DNA from: a virus
DNA: 45,076 nt
Virus record (IMG/VR): IMGVR_UViG_3300017605_000599
Coordinates: 1-45,076 of that record
Direction: 5' to 3' (one strand)
The notes beneath the pieces were generated by a model. It made no database searches. It was not told where the DNA came from and saw only the letters and a list, made by a program, of their open reading frames with translations. This document shows positions 1 to 45,022 of the stretch, one piece after another. Numbering within the stretch: the first letter of the stretch is position 1; every line of letters starts with the position of its first letter. The translations under genes and the position numbers were made by a program.

Positions 1-71
1 AGATGTGCTCTAGCGCGTTCGCCTGCTGGCAGACGTGGTGGAGGACCTGGCGAACGCGCTGGAGCACATCT
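1..71. repeat. Inverted repeat at the window edge, probable fold-back artefact
   Basis: Bases 1-23 are the reverse complement of 49-71 with one mismatch, leaving a 25-base loop. The related gene at the right end of the window continues smoothly upstream of the equivalent of position 20, whereas here the first 19 or so bases bring an in-frame stop (11-13) into the reading frame. I infer a chimeric snap-back end of the assembly rather than a biological hairpin. True phage sequence probably begins near position 20. Confidence 0.65.
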
Positions 72-157
72 CGATTGAACTAGACGGCAACTACTGTCGC
101 GACACTGCCCGCGCTGCTCTCGCGAGCGCCGCCGCGCGGCTGGGAGGGGTGAAGTGA
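14..157 (+). CDS. C-terminal fragment of a small early phage protein, paralogue of the gene at 44747
   Basis: The 5' end is missing. The frame ends at the TGA of 155-157 and, from about residue 3, reads RLLADVVEDLANALE, then a variable middle, then ARAALASAAARLG. The gene at 44747 has nearly the same two blocks (LLADVVEELANALE and ARAALASAAARLG) around a different, cysteine-containing middle, so these are two members of a small family, probably helical. The stop overlaps the GTG of the next gene. Function unknown. The first residues are unreliable because the window edge looks like a fold-back. Confidence 0.6.
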   Translation, partial: RVRLLADVVEDLANALEHISIELDGNYCRDTARAALASAAARLGGVK

Positions 158-4354: not shown

Positions 4355-4731
4355 CGGATCACCCCCGCGTGCGACAGCCGCACCAGCACGCCCGCCCACA
4401 GCAGCGGGAGCACGTGCCACGCCATGAACGCCACCCAGACCGCCAGGATGCCCGGCAGCAGGCCGACCGCGACGCGGCCGGCCTGCATGCGCTCCGTTGC
4501 CTCGTCCCATGCGTCGGTGCCGCGGATCGCGAGGCGCGCCGCCGCAGCTTTGCGGCGGTCCTCGGTGATGCCGGCTTCCTCGCCGCAGTAGCGTCCGCAG
4601 TTGCCGCAATAGAAATCGTCGCCCCCGTCGGTCACGTAGACGTTGCGGTATGGCTCGTCAGTGCTGATGTTGGCGCGGACCCACGCTTCAACGTGAATGT
4701 CCCGAGATCCGCAACGCGCGCAATAGATCAT
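4351..4731 (-). CDS. Membrane-anchored zinc-ribbon protein, 126 aa
   Basis: The ATG start overlaps the neighbour's stop. The N-terminus has CARCGS at residues 4-9, followed about 40 residues later by CGNCG, a zinc-ribbon arrangement. After a charged helix, residues 85-118 (VGLLPGILAVWVAFMAW, then HVLPLLWAGVLVRL) form one or two membrane segments. The layout suggests a cytoplasmic zinc domain tethered to the inner membrane. The role is unknown; takeover of a host membrane protein is possible but speculative. Confidence 0.65.
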   Translation of the reverse strand: MIYCARCGSRDIHVEAWVRANISTDEPYRNVYVTDGGDDFYCGNCGRYCGEEAGITEDRRKAAAARLAIRGTDAWDEATERMQAGRVAVGLLPGILAVWVAFMAWHVLPLLWAGVLVRLSHAGVIR

Positions 4732-4859
4732 CGCGCACCCCCGGCGTTGGTGAGGGCATCGGGACCGAACGCGCGCAGCACGCGCGCAGCGGCACGGTAC
4801 AGGCGAGCTCGCGCGAAGCGTGCCCGCCGCGGGTCGGACTTCCGGTAGGTTCTGCTCAT
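4728..4859 (-). CDS. Very small basic protein, 43 aa
   Basis: The ATG is preceded by GGAG in the sequence GGAGACCTTCGAGATG, which also contains a motif found in two other leaders of this phage. The product is highly arginine-rich (RKSDPRRARFARARLYRAAARVLRAF) and likely forms one amphipathic helix that could bind RNA or DNA. It ends by overlapping the next start by four bases. It is short, so the call depends on the ribosome site and the operon layout. Confidence 0.5.
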   Translation of the reverse strand: MSRTYRKSDPRRARFARARLYRAAARVLRAFGPDALTNAGGAR

Positions 4860-4953
4860 CTCGAAGGTCTCCAATCGGCCCGGGCTCATCAGGCACGGGT
4901 TAGGGCCGTGTCGCCGTGCGACCGCGCGAGCCTCCGCGCGGCGGTTTCGCCCG
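4860..4953 (-). promoter_or_regulatory. Only sizeable intergenic gap of the leftward operon
   Basis: Ninety-four bases separate two genes in an operon whose other junctions overlap. In mRNA sense the gap ends with GGAGACCTTCGAG directly at the start codon of the 43-residue gene. I see no convincing promoter or terminator in it. It could hold an internal translation control site based on the GGAGACCTTCGA motif. Confidence 0.35.
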
Positions 4954-5172
4954 TCAAAAGAGCGGTAGCACCTCTTGCGGCAGCACCTCGTTGAGCCACG
5001 GAGCGCCGGGGCCGTTGCCCTCTTCGTCGCACCAGAACGACACGAGCACCGTTGACCCGTCCGGGCGCCGCACCTCAAGGAACGGCACGCGGCCCACGCC
5101 TGCGGTCTCCTCGGAGCCGTGGTCCACGATGGTGCCGCCGACCAGCGAGGCGAGAATCGGGGGCCGCCTCAC
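4954..5172 (-). CDS. Hypothetical protein, 72 aa
   Basis: I chose the GTG overlapping the upstream stop as GTGA; another GTG seven codons upstream would overlap the neighbour by 25 bases. The product has beta strands SLVGGTIVDHG, RVPFLEVRRPDG and STVLVSFWCDE, which suggests a small barrel or sandwich fold. No signal peptide or membrane segment is seen, and no family is recognised. Confidence 0.6.
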   Translation of the reverse strand: MRRPPILASLVGGTIVDHGSEETAGVGRVPFLEVRRPDGSTVLVSFWCDEEGNGPGAPWLNEVLPQEVLPLF

Positions 5173-5771
5173 AGTGCGCCATCCTTCGGCCACGACGACG
5201 ACAGGCTGCAGGCGTTCTTCCCCGCGACCGTGATAGCGCCTGCCTTGTTCAGCAGGCCGCGCGCGATTGCGTCAGCCTTTGCCGCCTCCCACCGCTCGCG
5301 CGTGATACCAACCGCGTCGCGCGCCTCGGTGAAACGGTAGTCGGATCGGCCGTTGTAACTCGCCTTGAATGACCGCGTGCTGTGCAGCACCGTCCGAACG
5401 TCAAGCGGTAACTCTCCTGGCGCGGGCAACAGCCGCGCGAGGGGCGCATCCTCGCGGCACTGGATCGAGACCCCATGATCCTCACCGCAGAAAATCGACC
5501 GGCAGACCGCAACGGCACCCTCGGGAAGCTCTCCCGCGTCCAAGCGCGGCCAGTCGCGCGACGCATCGAACGGAGACAGCGCGGCATGATCGGCGAGCCG
5601 CACAATCCGCCACTCGTCCCGCGTTCCCCCCGACCATCCGTGGGACATGGTCAGGGCGTTCGACACCACAACCTTGAGCTTGCGGCCGCGGTACGACGGG
5701 AACGCGGCCGCGATGATCCGGTCCGCTTCGGGCATCTCGCCCGGGCTGATATGCAGCACGGCGCGGCTCAC
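5169..5771 (-). CDS. Conserved hypothetical phage protein, 200 aa
   Basis: GTG start overlapping the preceding stop. The region IIAAAFPSYRGRKLKV, then SHGWSGGTRDEWRIVRL, resembles hypothetical phage proteins in which a 'SHGWSGGTRD' loop follows an AFPSY-x-G-R-K motif. The C-terminal 70 residues (SDYRFTEARDAVGITRERWEAA, then ADAIARGLLNKAGAIT) look like a winged-helix unit, so the protein may bind DNA through its C-terminus. The function of the N-terminal part is unknown. Confidence 0.65.
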   Translation of the reverse strand: MSRAVLHISPGEMPEADRIIAAAFPSYRGRKLKVVVSNALTMSHGWSGGTRDEWRIVRLADHAALSPFDASRDWPRLDAGELPEGAVAVCRSIFCGEDHGVSIQCREDAPLARLLPAPGELPLDVRTVLHSTRSFKASYNGRSDYRFTEARDAVGITRERWEAAKADAIARGLLNKAGAITVAGKNACSLSSSWPKDGAL

Positions 5772-6860: not shown

Positions 6861-6885
6861 TTTGCAAAGCCTCGTCAGGGGAGGG

Positions 6886-6959
6886 TCGAAGGTCTCCGCG
6901 TCGCCCGGCCCGCCCGCCGTTCCCCCGAAGCAACGAGCGGGACCGGACTACCGCGACGC
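6886..6959 (-). promoter_or_regulatory. Leader of the leftward operon with hairpin and GGAGACCTTCGA motif
   Basis: In mRNA sense a perfect 7-base inverted repeat, GCGTCGC / GCGACGC (6959-6953 with 6904-6898), closes most of the leader. Directly after the right arm comes GGAGACCTTCGA (6897-6886). The same motif sits at the start codon of the 43-residue gene and at the start of the 39701 leader. The left arm coincides with the predicted transcription start. Confidence 0.45.
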
Positions 6960-6965
6960 ACGACC

Positions 6966-6994
6966 AACATAGGCGCGCTCCAGCGTGCTGTCAA
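6966..6994 (-). promoter_or_regulatory. Sigma70-type promoter of the leftward operon
   Basis: On the minus strand TTGACA (6994-6989, six of six to consensus) is followed by a 17-base spacer and TATGTT (6971-6966, four of six). Predicted start is near 6959, about 100 bases before the first start codon. The bases before the -35 box, CCCC, are the same as before the boxes at 9491 and 39666, so the three promoters look related. Confidence 0.75.
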
Positions 6995-6999
6995 GGGGT

Positions 7000-7639
7000 C
7001 CGAAGCAGACCACGCGAAAATCAGTATTTCTACGGAGCCGGCGCATATGGTATCGCGCGCGCGCTCACGCGCTCGAGGGTGCGCGCCCAGGCGCGCGTCA
7101 CGCCCGCGCGCGGTAGCCTTTAGGCTTCTACGCTCCCTACATCCTCCGACTCTCCGATCCTCCCCTGTCCTCCCGACATGCTTCTGACAGCGTAACCCAC
7201 TGCTACTACGTGGGATCGGACTGTGACCCCTTGCTATGATGCTGCTTATGCGATGTGCTGCAGGGGGTTACGGCGCTCGAATGCTGGGGAAACTCCAATG
7301 ATTTCGGGGTTCGATCGCGTACGGTCTCACCGAATATGAGCTTACGGGGGCTCTCGAGGTCCGACCCCACCTGGTGCATGGGACTCCCGTACCGTACTGC
7401 GCTTCGCGGGGGTCGGTCCGCAGACTGATGGGACTCCGGGGGCCCACCTGCACCTCCTTCCGGCATACCTCGGAAATCGAGCGGTAGGGAGGCGTGCTTG
7501 GCGCAGGCTGGCGTCTGGCGGGAGGGGTGAAGTCGGAGCCGCGGGAGAGGGATCGGCGATCGTGGGGCATCGTAGGAGGTCGGAGGTCGGATGGGACTCC
7601 GTGGTGGAACGGGAGCCGTGGGAGGCGTAGGATGGTTAT
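7000..7639. other. Largely non-coding region between divergent units
   Basis: No frame here has a plausible start, ribosome site and codon bias together. Three copies of ATGGGACTCC occur (7378, 7428, 7591). A perfect 8-base inverted repeat CCGACCCC / GGGGTCGG (7361-7368 with 7409-7416) encloses one copy and a small GCG-CTT-CGC hairpin. A GC-alternating tract (CGCGCGCGC type) lies near 7050-7110. The region may hold an untranslated RNA or operator sites. Confidence 0.4.
7232..7240 (+). promoter_or_regulatory. Candidate extended -10 promoter upstream of the tRNA
   Basis: TGCTATGAT is an extended -10 element (TGn plus TATGAT, five of six). No good -35 hexamer lies at the right distance, as is usual for extended -10 promoters. 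It would transcribe about 390 bases of non-coding sequence, then the tRNA and two small genes up to the terminator at 8468. Confidence 0.4.
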
Positions 7640-7714
7640 CGCGGGGTAGCTCAACGGCAGAGCGTCGCGCTCATAACGCGAAGGTTGGGGGTCCGATTCC
7701 CCTCCCCGCTTCCA
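7640..7714 (+). tRNA. tRNA with anticodon CAT (Met or lysidine-type Ile), CCA encoded
   Basis: A full cloverleaf can be drawn: acceptor CGCGGGG/CCCCGCT, T8, D stem GCTC/GAGC, anticodon stem TCGCG/CGCGA with loop CTCATAA (anticodon 7672-7674), variable AGGTT, T stem GGGGG/CCCCT, and an encoded CCA at 7712-7714. Odd points: positions 1 and 72 are C and T and cannot pair, as in an initiator tRNA, but the initiator's three G-C pairs at the end of the anticodon stem are absent. The T loop has C where T55 is expected, and the discriminator is T. It could be a methionine or an AUA-reading isoleucine tRNA. Confidence 0.8.
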
Positions 7715-7800
7715 GATTGCGCCGGGGTGTCTGAGAGAGAGCGAGTGTGCGGCCCACTTTCGCGCCTCGAGGATCCCCGGCGCGTAGCTTCGGAGGGCCG

Positions 7801-9243: not shown

Positions 9244-9494
9244 ACCGGCGCGGGTTCATCGGTGCGCTGGTGGCGTGCATCCCCGGCGTCGCGCTGCTGC
9301 GCCGTGCGCGTCCCTCGAACCCATACTGGGACGAAGTTGCCCGCCTCGGCCATCATCCGACCGGATCGGTGACGGTCGAGCACCCGAATGCGTGGTGGCG
9401 GAACCATCAGACTCCTCCAATCGATACCGTAAACCTCAATCTCGTCCGCTCCATCATGTTCCGCTGCAAGCGCGACTCGATATTCACCCCTTGA
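9240..9494 (+). CDS. Small protein with Tat-like N-terminus, 84 aa
   Basis: GTG start overlapping the previous stop. The N-terminus MNRRGFIGALVACIPGVALL has a twin-arginine pattern (RRGF) and a hydrophobic stretch, like a Tat signal or a short membrane anchor. The rest, about 60 residues, has no recognised domain. Its TGA stop lies inside the TTGACA box of the next promoter. Confidence 0.5.
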   Translation: MNRRGFIGALVACIPGVALLRRARPSNPYWDEVARLGHHPTGSVTVEHPNAWWRNHQTPPIDTVNLNLVRSIMFRCKRDSIFTP

Positions 9495-9520
9495 CAGCCT
9501 GCGCGCTCGAGGCCTACCCT
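9491..9520 (+). promoter_or_regulatory. Candidate promoter for the packaging/structural operon
   Basis: TTGACA (9491-9496, six of six) preceded by CCCC like the boxes at 6989 and 39666. The -10 element is poor: TACCCT at 18 bases spacing (three of six), so an activator may be needed, as would suit a late promoter. It opens a leader of about 180 bases before the first gene. Confidence 0.5.
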
Positions 9521-22759: not shown

Positions 22760-24681
22760 AGCGGGTGATGGCTGTTCTGGCGATGCTGCTGACGGCGGCT
22801 GCGGCGGAGGCGCGAACCCTCATCATCACGCCCCAGACAATCAGCGGGAACGGCATCGTCTCGCACACCATGCCGCGCACCCAGGTCGAAGGCGAGCTCG
22901 CGCGGCGAAACGCCAGGTACCTGTCCGTCACCGGACTCGTGGCCGACACCTCCGTGATCCGCACCGGCTACATGCGCGACTCGTTGAGCCACACCGGCGT
23001 CCAGTTCGATCTCATCGTGTTCGCGGGATACTACCGCGGCGGATGGGCGAACGCGGCGTACGACCCCGTTTACATCATGCGGGTCGCAAACTGGGCCTCC
23101 GTGCCGATCATCTTCATCGGCGTCGAGGGAAGGCCCAACGCGAACAAGTGGGCGACCGCGAACAACGACTCACTGACCGGCGTCAACACGAACGGCCCCT
23201 CGGCGCTCTACACCGCTGCGCAGGGCAGGCTCTACTCCACGAAGACTCTGCGCCCGTGGTATACGGGATCGTCCGACGGATTCGTGCGCGGCACTGCGCC
23301 GACGGCCTCCACGTTCTTCCGCACGATCGTCGGCTACGGCGCATCCACCTGTCAGGACAACACGCCCTGCGCTAACGCGAACGCGATGGCCGGGACCATG
23401 AGCGCCAACCCCGACACGATCGCGCTGTGGGTGCGTGGCGTGAACACCGGCGCAGGCTATTCGTTCTCGCCGGCAGCCAAGAACCGGTCGTGGCTGATCT
23501 TCTGCAACCAATCGGGCTCCTCGCTCGACACCCGCATGATTACCGCGTCTCTGACCCTCGCCGACTCGCTGACCGGCGGCCAGGTGTTCGATGACTCCAC
23601 GGCGGTGAAGCAGAAGGAAGGACTGGTGCTGGGCACCGCGTTCTCCACCGGGCGGTACTCGACCGGCGACGGCAGCCCGTCGGGCATCTTCTGCGCGGCC
23701 GACTCGTGCGACAGCGCCAACGTCTCCGCTTCGTTCGATTCGGTCATCTCGCGCGGCAAGCGCGTGACCATCCCGATGCAGCCCGACAGCGCGGCGGCGC
23801 TCGCGTGGCAGGCACCCTACTACCGGAAGCTGGGCGCGCTGGCGCACTACACCTACGAGGACCGCAGCGGGATCCTGACCTACGCGGGGACCAACGCCTC
23901 GAAGTACCGGACTATGGACGTGTTCGGTGAGTCGCGCACCCGCTGGTTCGTTCCGCGCGATTCCACGAGGCTTCCCTGCAACTGCCCCGACGCCGACAGC
24001 AGCCGCTTCTGCCTTCTGAGCGCCGCCCTGACGCGCACCGACTCGGTGGCCCGAGCCCTCGGTGGCGCGCTCGATCGCACCATCACCGCCCCGAACGGAC
24101 GGTGGGGGTGCCAGAACATGCTGTCGCGCTCGCCCGTCTCCGGCAAGACGCCCGACTCTCTGTACTGGTGCGACTACCAGGCCGGGGCGCGCGGATACCT
24201 CACCAACCCGCTCATCAACGCCATGAGTTCGTTTTCTACGTGGAGTGCTCCGCAGGTCGTGCAGGGATACGCCGCGGTCTGGGACTCGGCAGGGCCGAAG
24301 GTCAACGCGCGCGTGATGGCGACCATGCCGATCATCCCGGCGCGCCGCTACGAGGAACAGGGCGGCCTGCTCCTGCGGCCGGTGCACGACAACGTGGGTG
24401 AGGCAAACTTCGGGCTCGCGACGGGTGCGTGGTGGCCTAGCCGGCGACCGTTCCACGTAAGCCCCCACGACTTCTATGCTCGCACCTACGTGCAGCAGTG
24501 GCCGATCAGTGGGTTCGGAGGCGCCGGCCAGGGCACCACCGCGCGCCGATTCGCGTGGTACGAGATGGCGCGAAGCATCGACACCGCCGACATGGTGAAT
24601 CTGCTGGGCCTGCCAGGGCGCACCTACATCGAGTTCGACTGGCTCGAGAACATCGCCAAGACCCCCGGAGGGCTTCGGTGA
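22756..24681 (+). CDS. Large secreted protein of unknown function, 641 aa
   Basis: ATG start overlapping the previous stop. Residues 1-19 (MKRVMAVLAMLLTAAAAEA) are a Sec signal. Residues 60-130 have an alternating strand-helix pattern (FDLIVFAGYYRGGW, then VPIIFIGVEGRPN) as in alpha/beta or flavodoxin-like folds. The second half has eight or so cysteines (CNCPDADSSRFC, CQNM, CDYQ) and aromatic-rich segments (RPFHVSPHDFYARTYVQQWP). A polysaccharide-active enzyme is possible but I cannot identify catalytic residues. It lies between capsid and tail genes, so it may be a virion surface protein. Confidence 0.65.
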   Translation: MKRVMAVLAMLLTAAAAEARTLIITPQTISGNGIVSHTMPRTQVEGELARRNARYLSVTGLVADTSVIRTGYMRDSLSHTGVQFDLIVFAGYYRGGWANAAYDPVYIMRVANWASVPIIFIGVEGRPNANKWATANNDSLTGVNTNGPSALYTAAQGRLYSTKTLRPWYTGSSDGFVRGTAPTASTFFRTIVGYGASTCQDNTPCANANAMAGTMSANPDTIALWVRGVNTGAGYSFSPAAKNRSWLIFCNQSGSSLDTRMITASLTLADSLTGGQVFDDSTAVKQKEGLVLGTAFSTGRYSTGDGSPSGIFCAADSCDSANVSASFDSVISRGKRVTIPMQPDSAAALAWQAPYYRKLGALAHYTYEDRSGILTYAGTNASKYRTMDVFGESRTRWFVPRDSTRLPCNCPDADSSRFCLLSAALTRTDSVARALGGALDRTITAPNGRWGCQNMLSRSPVSGKTPDSLYWCDYQAGARGYLTNPLINAMSSFSTWSAPQVVQGYAAVWDSAGPKVNARVMATMPIIPARRYEEQGGLLLRPVHDNVGEANFGLATGAWWPSRRPFHVSPHDFYARTYVQQWPISGFGGAGQGTTARRFAWYEMARSIDTADMVNLLGLPGRTYIEFDWLENIAKTPGGLR

Positions 24682-36635: not shown

Positions 36636-37172
36636 ATGCCCCCGGACGTGTCCTCTATCCTGCGCGATGTTCTGCGCCGCGAAGGCGGCGGCAAGTACAC
36701 CGACGTGCCCGGCGACCGCGGCGGTCCCACGAAGTTCGGGATCACGCTCGCGACGCTGATCGGATGGCGTCGGCGCGACAACCCCAAGGCGTCGGTCACG
36801 GCCGACGACGTGAAGGCGCTGACCGAGGCCGAGGCGCTGGACATCTACCTGGCGCAGTACGTCCGCGACCCCGGCTTCCTGGTCCTGCCCGATCCGCTCA
36901 TGCCGATCCTGGTCGACATGGCGGTGAACCACGGACCGACGGCCGCGGTGCGCCTGCTCCAGCGTGCGGTGGGCGCCGAGGTCGACGGGGTGATGGGACC
37001 GGCCACGCGCGACCTCGTGCAGAAGCTCCCGACGGGGCGGATCCGCGCGGCGCTGTGCGCGGAACGTCAGCTCTACTACGCGACCATCGTCGCGAACGAC
37101 GTCACGCAGGCCAAGTTCCTGATCGGGTGGACGCGCCGCAACGCCGACTTCATCCGCGAGCTGGTGGCGTGA
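36636..37172 (+). CDS. Endolysin, GH108-type N-acetylmuramidase
   Basis: ATG with CAGGAGG and good spacing. The 178-residue protein matches family GH108: REGGGKYTDVPGDRGGPTKF-GIT at residues 15-37 with the catalytic glutamate E16, the motif DVKALTEAEALDIYLAQYV, and LPDPLMPILVDMAVNHGP followed by a peptidoglycan-binding-3-type end (AVGAEVDGVMGPATRDLV). It cuts the glycan strand of peptidoglycan. No signal peptide is seen, so it needs a holin; candidates lie 1.4 kb downstream. It starts the lysis module. Confidence 0.9.
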   Translation: MPPDVSSILRDVLRREGGGKYTDVPGDRGGPTKFGITLATLIGWRRRDNPKASVTADDVKALTEAEALDIYLAQYVRDPGFLVLPDPLMPILVDMAVNHGPTAAVRLLQRAVGAEVDGVMGPATRDLVQKLPTGRIRAALCAERQLYYATIVANDVTQAKFLIGWTRRNADFIRELVA

Positions 37173-37807
37173 AGCGTCTGCTGCTGCTCCTGCTGCTGGT
37201 GGCCTCGCCGGCAGCGGCTGCGCCGCTCGACACGCTGCGCTTCGTGTCTCCGCGCTGGATGCCCTACCCGGGCACCTGCGACTCGCTGGCAGTGGGCGTC
37301 CCAGAGGATTCCGTGATGGTGCTGCTCGAGCGCCTGCGCTACCCCGAGGCCGCATGGGTGATGGTCGACTCGATGCGCGTGGCGGCTGGCGACTCGTCGC
37401 GGTTCTTCGTGGTCGACCTGGGGGGATGCTCCCCCTGCGCCTTTCGCAAGTGGGCGCGGGACCGGGCCGGCAATGTCTCCTGCAACCCCTCCCGACCCGT
37501 CAACCTACCCCGCCCCGGCAACCCTGTGGGAGTGGGCGGTCCGCTGGCATTTCAGGCTCCGCGCGTGACTCCGGTGCCGGTCGACGACCTCGGCGCCGTG
37601 ACCTTCGCGGTGCCGCGCGCGGGCTTCGTGAGCATCACCCTGTACGACATCGCCGGCAGGCTCGTGCGAGTGGTCGTGGCAGGCTACCTGATGGCTGGTC
37701 CGCACGTCGCGATGTTCGAGGCCCGCAGCCTAGCGCCGGGCGTGTACTTCATCCGAATGCGGCAGGGAGAGATCGACGCGCGCTCCAAGGTGATCGTCCT
37801 CCGGTGA
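37169..37807 (+). CDS. Secreted protein with FlgD/type IX sorting-like C-terminal domain, 212 aa
   Basis: GTG start overlapping the endolysin stop. Residues 1-18 (KRLLLLLLLVASPAAAA) are a Sec signal. Residues 20-135 form an Ig-like region with four cysteines. The last 70 residues have the hallmarks of a FlgD-Ig/Por-secretion C-terminal sorting domain: AVTFAVPRAGFVSITLYDIA-GRLVRVVV, a turn, then APGVYFIRMRQG and a final SKVIVLR. In FCB-group bacteria this domain directs proteins to the cell surface by the type IX system. Finding it between endolysin and spanin suggests a role at the outer membrane in lysis, or surface modification. Confidence 0.75.
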   Translation: MKRLLLLLLLVASPAAAAPLDTLRFVSPRWMPYPGTCDSLAVGVPEDSVMVLLERLRYPEAAWVMVDSMRVAAGDSSRFFVVDLGGCSPCAFRKWARDRAGNVSCNPSRPVNLPRPGNPVGVGGPLAFQAPRVTPVPVDDLGAVTFAVPRAGFVSITLYDIAGRLVRVVVAGYLMAGPHVAMFEARSLAPGVYFIRMRQGEIDARSKVIVLR

Positions 37808-38865: not shown

Positions 38866-39414
38866 ATGAAGACATCCCCCGTATCTGCGCTGCTGGCCGG
38901 CGCGCTGCTGCTCCTGGTCGCGTTCGCGACGATGGCGCACGCCCAGTCCGACCTGTCCGGCGTGATGAAGGTGTCCGTCGGCGTCAACGGCGTCTGGTTC
39001 GATGGACCGAAGACCGAAGTCCCGCGGGATCTCGAGATCGGCGCCACCGCCAGCGCGAGCCTCTCGCAACACATCGACGTCGTTGGGCAGGGCTACTACG
39101 GCTTCGACAACTCCTACTTTCGATGGACGGTCGGCCCGCGCATCGGACTGAGCGACCCCAAGGCCAACCTGTCCATTGCGGCGGGCGTGTCGTACCACGC
39201 CTCCAGCGAGGCCGCCTTGAGGCCGGACGAGTGGAGTCCTGACGTGACGGTGGGCTGGAAGCCGTGGAGCAGCGTCCCGGGCCCCGGTATGCCGCCCGAC
39301 CGCCTGAACCGCGTGACGCTCGGCGTGCAGGGCTGGTACGGTCTCGAGTCCCAGCGAGCCGGCGGTCTGCTCGCCGTGCGGTACAACATCTGGAAGCAGG
39401 GAGGCCCGCAGTGA
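38866..39414 (+). CDS. Predicted outer-membrane beta-barrel protein with signal peptide, 182 aa
   Basis: ATG with AGGAG. Residues 1-26 (SALLAGALLLLVAFATMAHA, then QS) are a Sec signal. The mature protein is made of alternating amphipathic strands (VMKVSVGVNGVWFDG, LEIGATASASLSQHIDVVGQ, FRWTVGPRIGL, NLSIAAGVSYHAS, VTLGVQGWYGL, LLAVRYNIW), about 8-10 strands, as in small OmpA/OmpW-type barrels. A phage-encoded outer-membrane protein in the lysis block may change the cell surface, blocking superinfection or aiding release. Inference from topology. Confidence 0.65.
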   Translation: MKTSPVSALLAGALLLLVAFATMAHAQSDLSGVMKVSVGVNGVWFDGPKTEVPRDLEIGATASASLSQHIDVVGQGYYGFDNSYFRWTVGPRIGLSDPKANLSIAAGVSYHASSEAALRPDEWSPDVTVGWKPWSSVPGPGMPPDRLNRVTLGVQGWYGLESQRAGGLLAVRYNIWKQGGPQ

Positions 39415-39656
39415 AGATCCTCGATGTGTTCTCAGCCATTCTCGGCAAGGGCGCGGCGCCGGCCCGCGAGGTTCTCGAGTACGTCGCCGAGGGCGACACG
39501 GAGCTGTCACCGAAGGCGCGCGAGGCGCTGACGCAACTCGACCAGGAGGCGTCGCCCGAGGGCATCGCCGATGCGGTCGCCGCGCTTCCGGCCGAGATCA
39601 CCAACATCGTCCGGCTCAAGCTCGACCCGGTGGATAGGAACAGCAGCGACATCTGA
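39411..39656 (+). CDS. Hypothetical protein at the end of the late operon, 81 aa
   Basis: GTG with GGGAGG upstream, overlapping the barrel gene's stop. The product is helical and acidic (VLEYVAEGDTELSPKAREAL, TQLDQEASPEGIADAVAALP). No family, signal or membrane segment is seen. It ends ten bases before the next promoter; no terminator is visible between them, so late transcription may run into the early operon. Confidence 0.55.
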   Translation: MKILDVFSAILGKGAAPAREVLEYVAEGDTELSPKAREALTQLDQEASPEGIADAVAALPAEITNIVRLKLDPVDRNSSDI

Positions 39657-39665
39657 AAAGACCCC

Positions 39666-39694
39666 TTGACACCTAGGACTCGAGCGCCGATATT
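39666..39694 (+). promoter_or_regulatory. Sigma70-type early promoter
   Basis: TTGACA (39666-39671, six of six), 17-base spacer, GATATT (39689-39694, four of six). Preceded by CCCC like the boxes at 6989 and 9491. Predicted start near 39701, just where the interleaved inverted repeats begin. Confidence 0.75.
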
Positions 39695-39700
39695 AGGTGC

Positions 39701-39810
39701 ACGAGACCTTCGAGTCGGCAATCAGAATCACGGCATCGCCAGAACAGCCCGGTGGAAACTCGAAGGTCTCCCGGTGAGTCTGCGGTGGTGCCGTGATTCT
39801 TTCTTTTCCG
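39701..39810 (+). ncRNA. Candidate pseudoknotted leader RNA of the early operon
   Basis: Two perfect inverted repeats interleave. Arm 1, GAGACCTTCGAGT (39703-39715), pairs with ACTCGAAGGTCTC (39758-39770), 13 pairs. Arm 2, AGAATCACGGCA (39724-39735), pairs with TGCCGTGATTCT (39789-39800), 12 pairs. The order arm1-arm2-arm1'-arm2' is that of an H-type pseudoknot, or of two mutually influencing hairpins. The second stem is followed by TTCTTTTCC, like a terminator tail. The RecT-like start codon is 27 bases further. A cis-acting attenuator or regulator of the early operon is the simplest reading. Confidence 0.6.
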
Positions 39811-39827
39811 ACAAGGGGGTGGGACCG

Positions 39828-41171
39828 ATGAGCGAGAAGGCGCTGGCGGTGATTGCCGGCAGTACAAGCGAGAAGGTCGAGGCGTTCAAGCAGATCAGCG
39901 CGGGCGTGTCGTCGGGCCTGTTCCCGGCGACGTACGACACGGCGCCGAAGGTGATCGCGGCGTGCTGGGCGGCGGACGCGCTCGCGGTCCACCCGGTAAC
40001 GTTCATGCAGGGCGTGCACGCGATCGAGATTCAGGGACGGCGCGTGCTCGAGCCCAAGTGGGAGTTCGTGAACGGCCTGCTGCGCTCGCGGCTGCCGGGC
40101 TTCGGCTTCCTGGTCGTGGAGGAGACCGAGGCGCTGTGCACGATCGAAATGTGGGCGGAGGGAGTCGAGCGATTCTCGTACACCTATACGTGGAAGGACG
40201 CGGAGCGGCAGGGGCTCACGAGCCGCAACGCCGCGACGTGGAAGGCGAACAGCAAGGAGATGCTGTACAAGCAGACCTTCAAGCGCGCCGCGAAGCGGAT
40301 CGGTGCGCACGTCCTGATGGGCCTGCCGGCGGAAATGGACGAGGACGATCTGCCGGGAACGCCGATGCCGCCGCGGAACGCGAAGCCCGCGTCGGGCGCA
40401 CAGGTAGTCGAAGACGGTGCCGGTCGGGAGAGCACTCCCGCGGACGCCGGTAGCGCCGGAGGTCCGAAAGTCGATGAAAACTCGGAGGCCGGCACCGTCA
40501 TCGACTGGCACGCGCGGCTCGGCGAGGAGTTGAAGCGCGTCTACGGCAAGCAGCCGCGGCGCACGCTCGGCGAGAAGGCGCTGCTCCTGTACTCGTACGC
40601 GCGCAAGGACGTGCCGCCGCTCAAGTCGTTCAAGGAGATCGGCCCCGTCGAGGCGCAGACGATCGTCGAGTACATCATGGACACGTGGCCGGTGGGTGGC
40701 GATGGGCCTGCGGTAGAGGTGGCCGCGTCGCAGGAAGCGAAGCCCGACGCCCCCACCACGGCCTCGCCAGTGTACGACGACCAGCAGGAGGGGATCGACC
40801 CGCGGCTGAGCGGATTCGCCGAGACGCTGGCCGCCATGCCGCCCGAGGACGACGGGCCGCCGCCGATGGACGACCCCGAGGCCGACCGGCTCGCAGACGA
40901 GGCGTTCGGGATGACGCGCGACTCGTTCCTCGCGCACGTCGCGCGGGAGCGCAAGCGCCTCAAGGGCGATCGTCCGCTGGTGAAAGAGGCGCCGCCCGGA
41001 TCGGGGCGCTTCTACGTCACCGACCCGCTGGTGCTCAAGGAGGCCGGGTACGACGCCTCGCTGTGCATCCAGAAGGACGGGATGCTCCAGGTGCATCCGA
41101 GCGAGCTGATGCGGCTGGCGAAGATCATCACGGCGCAGGCGGATGCGGCCGAGAGCGGGAGGCGCGCTTGA
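39828..41171 (+). CDS. RecT-like single-strand annealing protein, 447 aa
   Basis: ATG with AAGGGGGTG upstream; upstream in-frame sequence lies within the structured leader and is rejected. Residues 20-180 show the RecT pattern: AACWAADALAVHPVTFMQGV, LPGFGFLVVEETEALCTIEM, the W-K-D-A near 110, and then ATWKANSKEMLYKQTFKRAA-KRIGAHVLMGLP, which corresponds to the W-x-x-x-P-x-x-M-x-x-R-A and C-terminal portion of that family. RecT-type proteins anneal complementary single strands in phage recombination. The last 220 residues are a variable acidic extension with a helical unit near 220-265 and a beta end (RFYVTDPLVLKEAGYDASLC). Confidence 0.65.
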   Translation: MSEKALAVIAGSTSEKVEAFKQISAGVSSGLFPATYDTAPKVIAACWAADALAVHPVTFMQGVHAIEIQGRRVLEPKWEFVNGLLRSRLPGFGFLVVEETEALCTIEMWAEGVERFSYTYTWKDAERQGLTSRNAATWKANSKEMLYKQTFKRAAKRIGAHVLMGLPAEMDEDDLPGTPMPPRNAKPASGAQVVEDGAGRESTPADAGSAGGPKVDENSEAGTVIDWHARLGEELKRVYGKQPRRTLGEKALLLYSYARKDVPPLKSFKEIGPVEAQTIVEYIMDTWPVGGDGPAVEVAASQEAKPDAPTTASPVYDDQQEGIDPRLSGFAETLAAMPPEDDGPPPMDDPEADRLADEAFGMTRDSFLAHVARERKRLKGDRPLVKEAPPGSGRFYVTDPLVLKEAGYDASLCIQKDGMLQVHPSELMRLAKIITAQADAAESGRRA

Positions 41172-41473
41172 TCGACCGCGACACGGTGTACCGGCTGCGC
41201 GTGCTCGCACGTCGTGCGCTGTCTCGCGCGCCCAGTCCGTGGCACAGCGTCGGCTCGGCGGTGGTCTGCAAGGCGCCGCCGGGGCTCGGCGCGGACAGCG
41301 ACGACCTGCGCTACTACGGCGGCGGTCGGCTCGTCGGGGAGAGCATGGACGAGCCCGTGGCGTTGTTCATCTCGGAGTGCGATCCGGGCACCATCATCTC
41401 CCTGTGCGAAGCGGTGGAGTCCCTGACGTGGCAGGCGGCGGAAAAGTGTCTGCTGCCGGGCAGGACTGCGTGA
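41168..41473 (+). CDS. Ea22-like small phage protein, 101 aa
   Basis: TTG start overlapping the previous stop as TTGA, so translation is probably coupled. Residues 50-90 (YYGGGRLVGESMDEPVALFI, then SECDPGTIISLCEAVESL) carry the 'yyGG-lvgEsm ... a-fIa-a-P-tiisLl-evE' pattern of Ea22/Ead-like phage proteins. Their function is not known; they are usually encoded in early operons. It overlaps the exonuclease gene by one base. Confidence 0.65.
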   Translation: MIDRDTVYRLRVLARRALSRAPSPWHSVGSAVVCKAPPGLGADSDDLRYYGGGRLVGESMDEPVALFISECDPGTIISLCEAVESLTWQAAEKCLLPGRTA

Positions 41474-42219
41474 TGCGTGTGTGGCTCGCGGTGGACGGCA
41501 ACGGCGTGATGCGCCGCCTGTACCACGCCAACGGTCTGCGCGAGGGGCTCGCGGAGAGGTTCACGTCGAAGGTGCGCCACTGGCGCGAGCAGTACGGCGC
41601 GGATCGCGTGTTCGTGGCGTGGGACTCGCGACCCACGCACCGGCAGGCGATGCTTCCATCGTACAAGGCGCACCGCGGCGCGACGCCCGACGCCGTGACG
41701 GTGGGGATTGCAGAGGCGGCGGGGGGTCTCTACAAGAAGCCGCTGGAAGGGCACTGGGACAACCTGCTGAACATCGGCTGGGAGGCTGACGATCTGCTCG
41801 CGTCCGTCGCCGCTGAGGCTCCGCTGTCCTCCAAGGTGGTCGTCGTTTCCGACGACAAGGACATGATGGCGGTGCTGACGCACGGCGTCGTGGTGGCTCG
41901 GCCGTGCGAGAAGATGGCCGAGACCACGCACGCCTCGTTCGTGGACAAGAACGGCTGGGAGCCGGACCGAATGCCCGACTACCTGGCACTGGTGGGCGAC
42001 GCCGCCGACGGCATCCCGGGCGTGCCGGGGATCGGGGAACTGACCGGAAAGGCAATCCTCCGAAGCTACGGCAGCCTCGATAGCGCACTGGTCTTCGCCG
42101 AGCGGCCTCTAACGGCCACCCTGAAAGTCCCGACTCTGCTGCGGCAACACGCTGACGCGGCGCGGCTGTATAAGCGCGTCGCCACTCTCAACGACCGACT
42201 ACTGGAAGGAGCGATATGA
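41473..42219 (+). CDS. FEN-type 5'-3' exonuclease (T5 D15/Pol I N-terminal type), 248 aa
   Basis: All hallmarks of the flap endonuclease family are visible: D8 in LAVDGNG, WDSRPTHRQAMLPSYKAHR (residues 50-68), EADD (104-107), SDDKD (126-130), and GDAADGIPGVPGIG (175-188), the helix-hairpin-helix-like motif that contacts DNA. These acidic residues bind two metal ions for 5'-3' exonuclease and flap cleavage. The length matches stand-alone phage FENs. It sits beside the RecT-like gene and could make the single-strand tails that RecT anneals, or remove replication primers. Confidence 0.9.
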   Translation: MRVWLAVDGNGVMRRLYHANGLREGLAERFTSKVRHWREQYGADRVFVAWDSRPTHRQAMLPSYKAHRGATPDAVTVGIAEAAGGLYKKPLEGHWDNLLNIGWEADDLLASVAAEAPLSSKVVVVSDDKDMMAVLTHGVVVARPCEKMAETTHASFVDKNGWEPDRMPDYLALVGDAADGIPGVPGIGELTGKAILRSYGSLDSALVFAERPLTATLKVPTLLRQHADAARLYKRVATLNDRLLEGAI

Positions 42220-44750: not shown

Positions 44751-45022
44751 GCGACCCCCGCAGTGCGCTGGCGGCGCGACTGGCCGAAATCAGAGCGAGA
44801 GCACGCAACTACTCGCACATGGTCGAGACCGGTGAGAACTGCCGCCTGCTGGCAGACGTGGTGGAGGAACTGGCGAACGCGCTGGAACGGATCGAACGCG
44901 GGCCGTGCGCGTGCGGCTCCGTGACTGCGTGCGTCGAGATTGCTCGCGCTGCTCTCGCGAGCGCCGCCGCGCGGCTAGGAACCCAAGGAAGAACTTCAAC
45001 CAAGGAGCCTGGATGCCTCTAG
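44747..45022 (+). CDS. Small early phage protein, 91 aa, paralogue of the left-edge gene
   Basis: ATG overlapping the previous stop. Helical (ALAARLAEIRARARNYSH), then CRLLADVVEELANALERIER, a cysteine pair CACGSVTAC, and ARAALASAAARLG. The blocks LLADVVEELANALE and ARAALASAAARLG match the gene fragment at the left edge almost exactly at DNA level, while the middle and the end differ. Function unknown. Confidence 0.65.
   Translation: MSDPRSALAARLAEIRARARNYSHMVETGENCRLLADVVEELANALERIERGPCACGSVTACVEIARAALASAAARLGTQGRTSTKEPGCL

What the first reader, a model, noticed from the sequence alone, without database searches (positions are those of the whole stretch)
39666..39827. Early-operon leader with two interleaved perfect inverted repeats (pseudoknot or attenuator)
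A near-consensus promoter is followed, from the predicted start point, by 13-bp and 12-bp perfect inverted repeats in the order A-B-A'-B'. This is the topology of an H-type pseudoknot. The B stem is followed by a T-rich tail like a terminator. Such long perfect arms in 100 bases of leader are unlikely by chance. I know of no described riboswitch with these arms; it could sense a phage protein or metabolite, or act as an attenuator for the recombination operon.
Basis: partly seen in the sequence, partly recalled or inferred. Interest (0 to 1): 0.75.

Follow-up and report, generated by a model that had tools for sequence, protein, structure and literature searches.

The report
Structured leader of phage recombination operon
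Just upstream of a virus's DNA-recombination genes lies a stretch of RNA that can fold back on itself in two interlocked ways, and one of its arms recurs in front of the virus's other early genes, so it is probably a switch that controls early gene expression, although no relatives could be found to prove it.

Summary
Promoter TTGACA-17-GATATT (39666-39694) is followed by a 13-bp perfect inverted repeat, A/A' (39703-39715/39758-39770), interleaved with a 12-bp perfect repeat, B/B' (39724-39735/39789-39800). B/B' extends to 17 bp with two G-U pairs on the + strand. In 30,000 shuffles no interleaved pair reached even 10+10 bp. The downstream gene is a divergent RecT.

The best reading is a structured 5' leader RNA controlling the rightward early (recombination) operon. 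A:A' forms first. B:B' then forms, either as a large H-type pseudoknot or, in the nested minimum, with A moved onto the RecT Shine-Dalgarno. The B hairpin ends in a U-rich tract, so termination is also possible.

Arm A is a motif, GGAGACCTTCGA(G), that recurs in the leftward early leader (6885-6897, -) and spans the Shine-Dalgarno-to-start region of a 43-aa left-operon ORF (4860-4872, -). No other 12-mer is shared by three noncoding regions (p about 0.002-0.013, post hoc). This suggests shared regulation of both early operons, by a protein or by antisense pairing of A'.

No close relative was found, so covariation is untested. Pseudoknot formation, termination and regulation are inferred.

The parts
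39660..39694 (+). Rightward early promoter GACCCC-TTGACA-17-GATATT; the extended box ACCCCTTGACA is shared with 6989-6999 (-) and 9486-9496 (+)
39703..39715 (+). Arm A, GAGACCTTCGAGT, at about +3 of the predicted transcript
39724..39740 (+). Arm B: 12 perfect pairs (39724-39735) plus 5 pairs including two G-U
39758..39770 (+). Arm A', ACTCGAAGGTCTC; complementary to arm A and to the motif in the left operon
39784..39800 (+). Arm B', complementary to arm B
39801..39808 (+). T-rich tract TTCTTTTC after the B:B' hairpin (terminator-like)
   Evidence: 6 T in 8
39813..39820 (+). Shine-Dalgarno region AAGGGGGT of the RecT gene; predicted alternative partner of arm A
   Evidence: pairing not stronger than chance
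39828..41171 (+). RecT-like single-strand annealing protein, first gene of the operon (447 aa)
   Evidence: tblastn to annotated RecT-like proteins; five of the seven other members of its alignment match Pfam RecT; best fold hit 7ub2 RecT, probability 0.96 but E 0.13
41428..42219 (+). 5'-3' exonuclease of the same operon
   Evidence: gene model
6966..7000 (-). Leftward early promoter GACCCC-TTGACA-17-TATGTT
6885..6897 (-). Copy of motif, GGAGACCTTCGAC, in the left-operon leader; predicted in a small hairpin GGAG-loop-CUCC
4860..4872 (-). Copy of motif, GGAGACCTTCGAG, spanning Shine-Dalgarno to start codon of a 43-aa ORF
4728..4859 (-). 43-aa ORF, overlaps the next gene by ATGA

Best explanation
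It is the structured 5' leader RNA of the phage's rightward early (recombination) operon, acting in cis to set expression of the RecT-like gene and the genes after it. As the RNA emerges, A pairs with A' (13 bp). When B' emerges, the very stable B:B' helix (17 bp) forms in addition, giving a large H-type pseudoknot, or it displaces A:A' so that A can pair with the RecT ribosome-binding site. The fold therefore decides whether the ribosome-binding site is open, and the U-rich end of B:B' may also cause some termination. A ligand, most plausibly a phage protein (RecT itself, or a regulator that also recognises the same motif in the left operon), would choose between the folds. Shown: the arms, their order, their rarity, the promoter match, the gene context and the motif copies. 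Inferred: transcription start, fold in the cell, switching, ligand and direction of the effect.
For: Interleaved arms far beyond chance. Position directly behind the best promoter match of the region and before the RecT gene. The only two non-Watson-Crick pairs of the 17-bp B helix are G-U on the + strand, fitting selection on the + strand RNA. Fold z-score -2.6, although the minus strand scores the same. Stepwise folding: A:A' -27.3 kcal/mol when A' is out; B:B' dominates at -40.9 once B' is out; full-length nested minimum -55.6 with the Shine-Dalgarno closed, against -45.8 with A:A' forced and about -46.5 for a crude pseudoknot sum. Loop lengths 8, 17 and 13 nt look sterically possible for the pseudoknot (own estimate). 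Arm A recurs in the left early leader and at a left-operon start site.
Against: No homologous leader, hence no covariation. A:Shine-Dalgarno pairing is not better than chance: 14.6% of genomic 22-mers pair as well. A and B share no bases, so they are not a classical mutually exclusive attenuator. No Rfam match. Recurrence of A elsewhere could equally mark a protein-binding DNA site.
Confidence: 0.45

Rival explanations
1. The shared motif GGAGACCTTCGA(G) is the binding site of a phage regulator protein, acting on DNA (operators at both early promoters) or on RNA (translational repressor). A and A' are two copies of the site in opposite orientation, and B/B' is a separate terminator or stabilising hairpin.
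For: Four copies of an 11-mer, all noncoding: A, A', left leader, left-operon start site; the only 12-mer shared by three noncoding regions. One copy sits between Shine-Dalgarno and start codon, the position used by translational repressors such as T4 RegA (PMC3014915). HTH-like proteins are encoded at 1345-1662 and 5172-5771 (weak matches).
Against: Copies at +70 and inside an operon are unusual for transcriptional operators; the motif has no clear dyad; it does not explain why A/A' is interleaved with a second perfect repeat that has no other copy in the genome.
Confidence: 0.23
2. The leader acts in trans as an antisense RNA, in the manner of phage P1 c4: A', exposed in the apical loop of B:B', pairs with the left-operon leader and with the ribosome-binding site of the 43-aa ORF, so expression of the right operon (or a leader terminated after B') represses the left one. 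Arm A regulates this by masking A'.
For: 13 nt of perfect complementarity to Shine-Dalgarno-through-spacer at 4860-4872 and 12 nt to 6886-6897; predicted net interaction -13.3 and -12.1 kcal/mol after opening costs; the left copy lies in a hairpin loop. The flank of A' also matches (GGAGACCTTCGAG), so A' fits the left targets better than arm A does.
Against: A in the same molecule competes with 13 bp. The longer 17-nt match of 39733-39749 to a late gene (22770-22786) lies within the background of long matches in this genome and scores weakly, so the method produces false targets. No RNA data.
Confidence: 0.15
3. B:B' is simply the transcription terminator of the late operon that ends at 39656 (and a mild attenuator of the early operon), and A/A' is incidental or mRNA-stabilising.
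For: It lies directly after the last late gene (39656); 17-bp stem followed by TTCTTTTC; no such tract on the minus strand.
Against: The stem closes with A-U pairs and spans a 43-nt loop; the consensus scan finds no strong terminator. A strong unregulated terminator between an early promoter and its genes would be costly. It ignores A/A' and the copies of A.
Confidence: 0.14

Closest known systems
T4/RB69 gene 32 mRNA pseudoknot (autogenous translational operator)
   Same: Leader RNA in front of a phage single-stranded-DNA recombination protein gene, pseudoknot topology at the 5' end, possible autoregulation by the product (PMC535899, PMC3014915).
   Different: The T4 element is about 28 nt, followed by an unstructured A+U-rich UUAAA tract; here the arms are 13 and 17 bp over about 98 nt, the region before the start codon is G-rich, and the gene is RecT-like, not gp32. 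No homology.
P1/P7 c4 antisense RNA (Rfam has a family for it)
   Same: Short complementary blocks shared by a leader-type RNA and a ribosome-binding site of another early gene (recalled from general knowledge; not found in detail in the open library).
   Different: No Rfam match; here targets are on a different transcript and the antisense block also pairs strongly in cis.
Transcription attenuators / antiterminated early leaders (lambda nut, HK022 put)
   Same: Element in an early leader, between promoter and first gene, with a motif common to left and right leaders.
   Different: The two leaders share only an 11-12-nt motif, not a common hairpin set; helices A and B do not compete for bases; no antiterminator gene recognised.
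T4 RegA-type translational repression
   Same: One motif copy lies between Shine-Dalgarno and AUG.
   Different: RegA sites are A+U-rich, unstructured and include the AUG (PMC3014915); this motif is G+C-richer and sits partly in hairpins.

Membership tests
H-type pseudoknot (structural class) | Two helices with order A-B-A'-B' | tested here: met
   Sequence topology
H-type pseudoknot (structural class) | Both helices form at once in the RNA | not testable with these tools
   Crude energy sum -46.5 against -55.6 for a nested fold; needs probing
Conserved structured RNA (riboswitch or leader family) | Homologues with compensatory changes | tested here: inconclusive
   No homologue found in viral contigs, genomes or phage records
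Conserved structured RNA (riboswitch or leader family) | Match to an Rfam model | tested here: not met
   No match up to E = 5
Intrinsic terminator / attenuator | Stable hairpin followed directly by a U-run | tested here: inconclusive
   17-bp B:B' plus TTCTTTTC; loop 43 nt, A-U closing pairs, not found by the consensus scan
Classical attenuator | Alternative helices share a strand | tested here: not met
   A:A' and B:B' share no base; only A:Shine-Dalgarno competes with A:A', at chance strength
T4 gene 32-type autogenous operator | Pseudoknot followed by unstructured A+U-rich repeats over the ribosome-binding site | tested here: not met
   39801-39827 is TTCTTTTCCGACAAGGGGGTGGGACCG
c4-type antisense RNA | Complementarity to the ribosome-binding site of a regulated early gene | tested here: met
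   13 nt at 4860-4872 (-); that the gene is regulated is not shown
c4-type antisense RNA | Repression in trans | not testable with these tools
   Needs reporters
RecT annealing proteins (gene 39828-41171) | Sequence or fold relation to RecT | tested here: met
   Weak but consistent; no direct Pfam or PHROG hit for the window protein itself

The most novel reading that the evidence does not exclude
One early leader RNA is at once a large pseudoknot that regulates its own recombination operon and a trans-acting antisense RNA, through arm A', against the opposing early operon, so that two early operons of a phage are cross-regulated by RNA alone.
Probability: 0.12. Interest if true: 0.78.

Novelty: new variant of a known kind. 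Interest (0 to 1): 0.45.

Why it matters
Pseudoknot control of phage genes is rarely documented. [quoted passage not shown] A large pseudoknot-capable leader before a recT gene, with one arm shared by the other early operon, gives a compact and testable case of RNA-level coordination of early phage operons in a lineage with no close sequenced relative.

Tried and rejected
Homologues of the leader: blastn in phage records, exact-gap patterns for the A arms (19 hits; on inspection none has long interleaved arms or a promoter), promoter plus motif (one hit, lying antisense in a DNA methylase gene, rejected) and the B arms (none). Relatives by protein: RecT, exonuclease and terminase as single queries found none; profiles found only distant relatives at 23-32%, and 35 of the terminase relatives' records have no detectable RecT relative. 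Rfam: none. A:Shine-Dalgarno switch: predicted in the minimum-energy fold but not stronger than chance, so kept only as a possibility. The 17-nt complementarity to a late gene at 22770: within the background of long matches, rejected as a target. Leader peptide: a 26-codon GTG ORF (39697-39777) covers A, B and A' but starts upstream of the predicted TSS and has no Shine-Dalgarno, not pursued. The frame of RecT is open back to 39666; the start at 39828 was preferred by coding score and ribosome-binding site. Riboswitch for a metabolite: no evidence.

Full report
Observation. The sequence at 39657-39827 was read directly. The intergenic region between the last late gene (ends 39656) and the RecT-like gene (starts 39828; gene map) holds one promoter match, TTGACA-17-GATATT at 39666-39694, the only sigma-70-like hit in the right-hand 20 kb. 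After it come A (39703-39715), B (39724-39735), A' (39758-39770) and B' (39789-39800), both pairs perfect. B:B' extends to 17 bp with two pairs of the U-G type on the + strand (39736-39788 and 39738-39786); on the minus strand these would be C-A mismatches, which mildly favours the + strand RNA as the functional form.

Chance. In 30,000 dinucleotide shuffles of the region, a single perfect repeat of 12 or more occurred 20 times and an interleaved pair of 9+9 or more 6 times; 10+10 never occurred. In 659 kb of other phage DNA there was none at 11+11. Within the window single 12-bp repeats occur elsewhere (at 12-60 and 517-587), but no other interleaved pair has both arms above 9. The configuration is therefore not accidental. 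The generic fold z-score is modest and similar on both strands (-2.62 and -2.64), as expected for inverted repeats.

Context. The first gene is a divergent RecT-like annealing protein. tblastn finds RecT-like proteins of actinophages at 27% identity; five of the seven other members of the alignment match Pfam RecT while the window protein itself does not; the predicted model is of low confidence (mean pLDDT 63) but its best solved match is RecT of phage A118 (7ub2, probability 0.96, E 0.13). A 5'-3' exonuclease follows. The phage has three copies of an extended promoter box ACCCCTTGACA: rightward early (39661), leftward early (6989, -) and before the late genes (9486).

Folding. Stepwise minimum-energy folds give A:A' first (-27.3 kcal/mol at 39775), then B:B' (-40.9 at 39800), and with the start region a nested fold of -55.6 in which A pairs with the RecT Shine-Dalgarno and A' lies in the apical part of B:B'. 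Forcing A:A' gives -45.8. A crude pseudoknot sum (B helix, A helix, +9.6 initiation) gives -46.5 with the inner loops left open; it is only a rough figure. The loops (8, 17, 13 nt) look long enough for both helices to coexist. A and B do not compete for bases, so a classical attenuator is not the right picture; the pseudoknot, or a sequential switch driven by A:Shine-Dalgarno, is. The A:Shine-Dalgarno pairing itself is not stronger than chance (14.6% of genomic 22-mers do as well), so the ribosome-binding-site switch is a possibility only.

The motif beyond the leader. GAGACCTTCGA, the core of arm A, has four exact copies in the window: A, A' (opposite strand), 6886-6896 (-) and 4861-4871 (-). 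The last two lie in the leader of the leftward early operon, about 70 nt after its promoter, and directly at the start of a 43-aa ORF as GGAGACCTTCGAG-ATG, i.e. Shine-Dalgarno plus spacer. GGAGACCTTCGA is the only 12-mer shared by three or more noncoding regions. Three of 2,000 sets of shuffled regions, and 25 of 2,000 sets of non-overlapping random genome segments, contain any such 12-mer. The complement of A' matches the left copies better than A does (GGAGACCTTCGAG), and duplexes between A' and the two left sites are predicted at -12 to -13 kcal/mol net of opening. Either a protein recognises the motif in both operons, or A' is an antisense segment. The motif was searched for after seeing the arms, so these p-values are post hoc.

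Relatives. No near relative of the leader or the phage was found in viral contigs, bacterial genomes or phage records.

Verdict. Real, statistically strong anatomy; most likely a cis-acting structured leader with a probable tie to the other early operon. The mechanism is inferred. It works like a leader-pseudoknot or attenuator element but cannot be filed in any known family: it fails the Rfam search, the gene 32 operator layout (PMC535899, PMC3014915) and the shared-strand criterion of classical attenuators.

Noticed in passing
window 1-71: The contig begins with a near-perfect 23-nt inverted repeat (arms 1-23 and 49-71, one mismatch), probably a fold-back artefact at the contig end or a terminal hairpin.
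   Followed up: no
window 20-141 and 44843-44976: The two contig ends hold diverged copies of the same short gene (26- and 32-nt exact matches), so neighbouring paralogues may flank the missing junction.
   Followed up: partly
window 37169-37807 and 38866-39414: Phage genes with a weak match to the Por secretion-system C-terminal sorting domain and to an outer-membrane beta-barrel, near the endolysin; they hint at a host of the Bacteroidota/Gemmatimonadota kind.
   Followed up: partly
window 6989-6999 (-), 9486-9496 (+), 39661-39671 (+): Extended promoter box ACCCCTTGACA in three places, apparently left early, late and right early promoters.
   Followed up: partly
window 7640-7714: A tRNA-Met (CAT) gene in the long noncoding stretch 6861-7800.
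   Followed up: no
window 22770-22786 (+): 17-nt perfect complement of leader 39733-39749 in codons 6-11 of a late gene; long matches of this size are background in this genome.
   Followed up: yes
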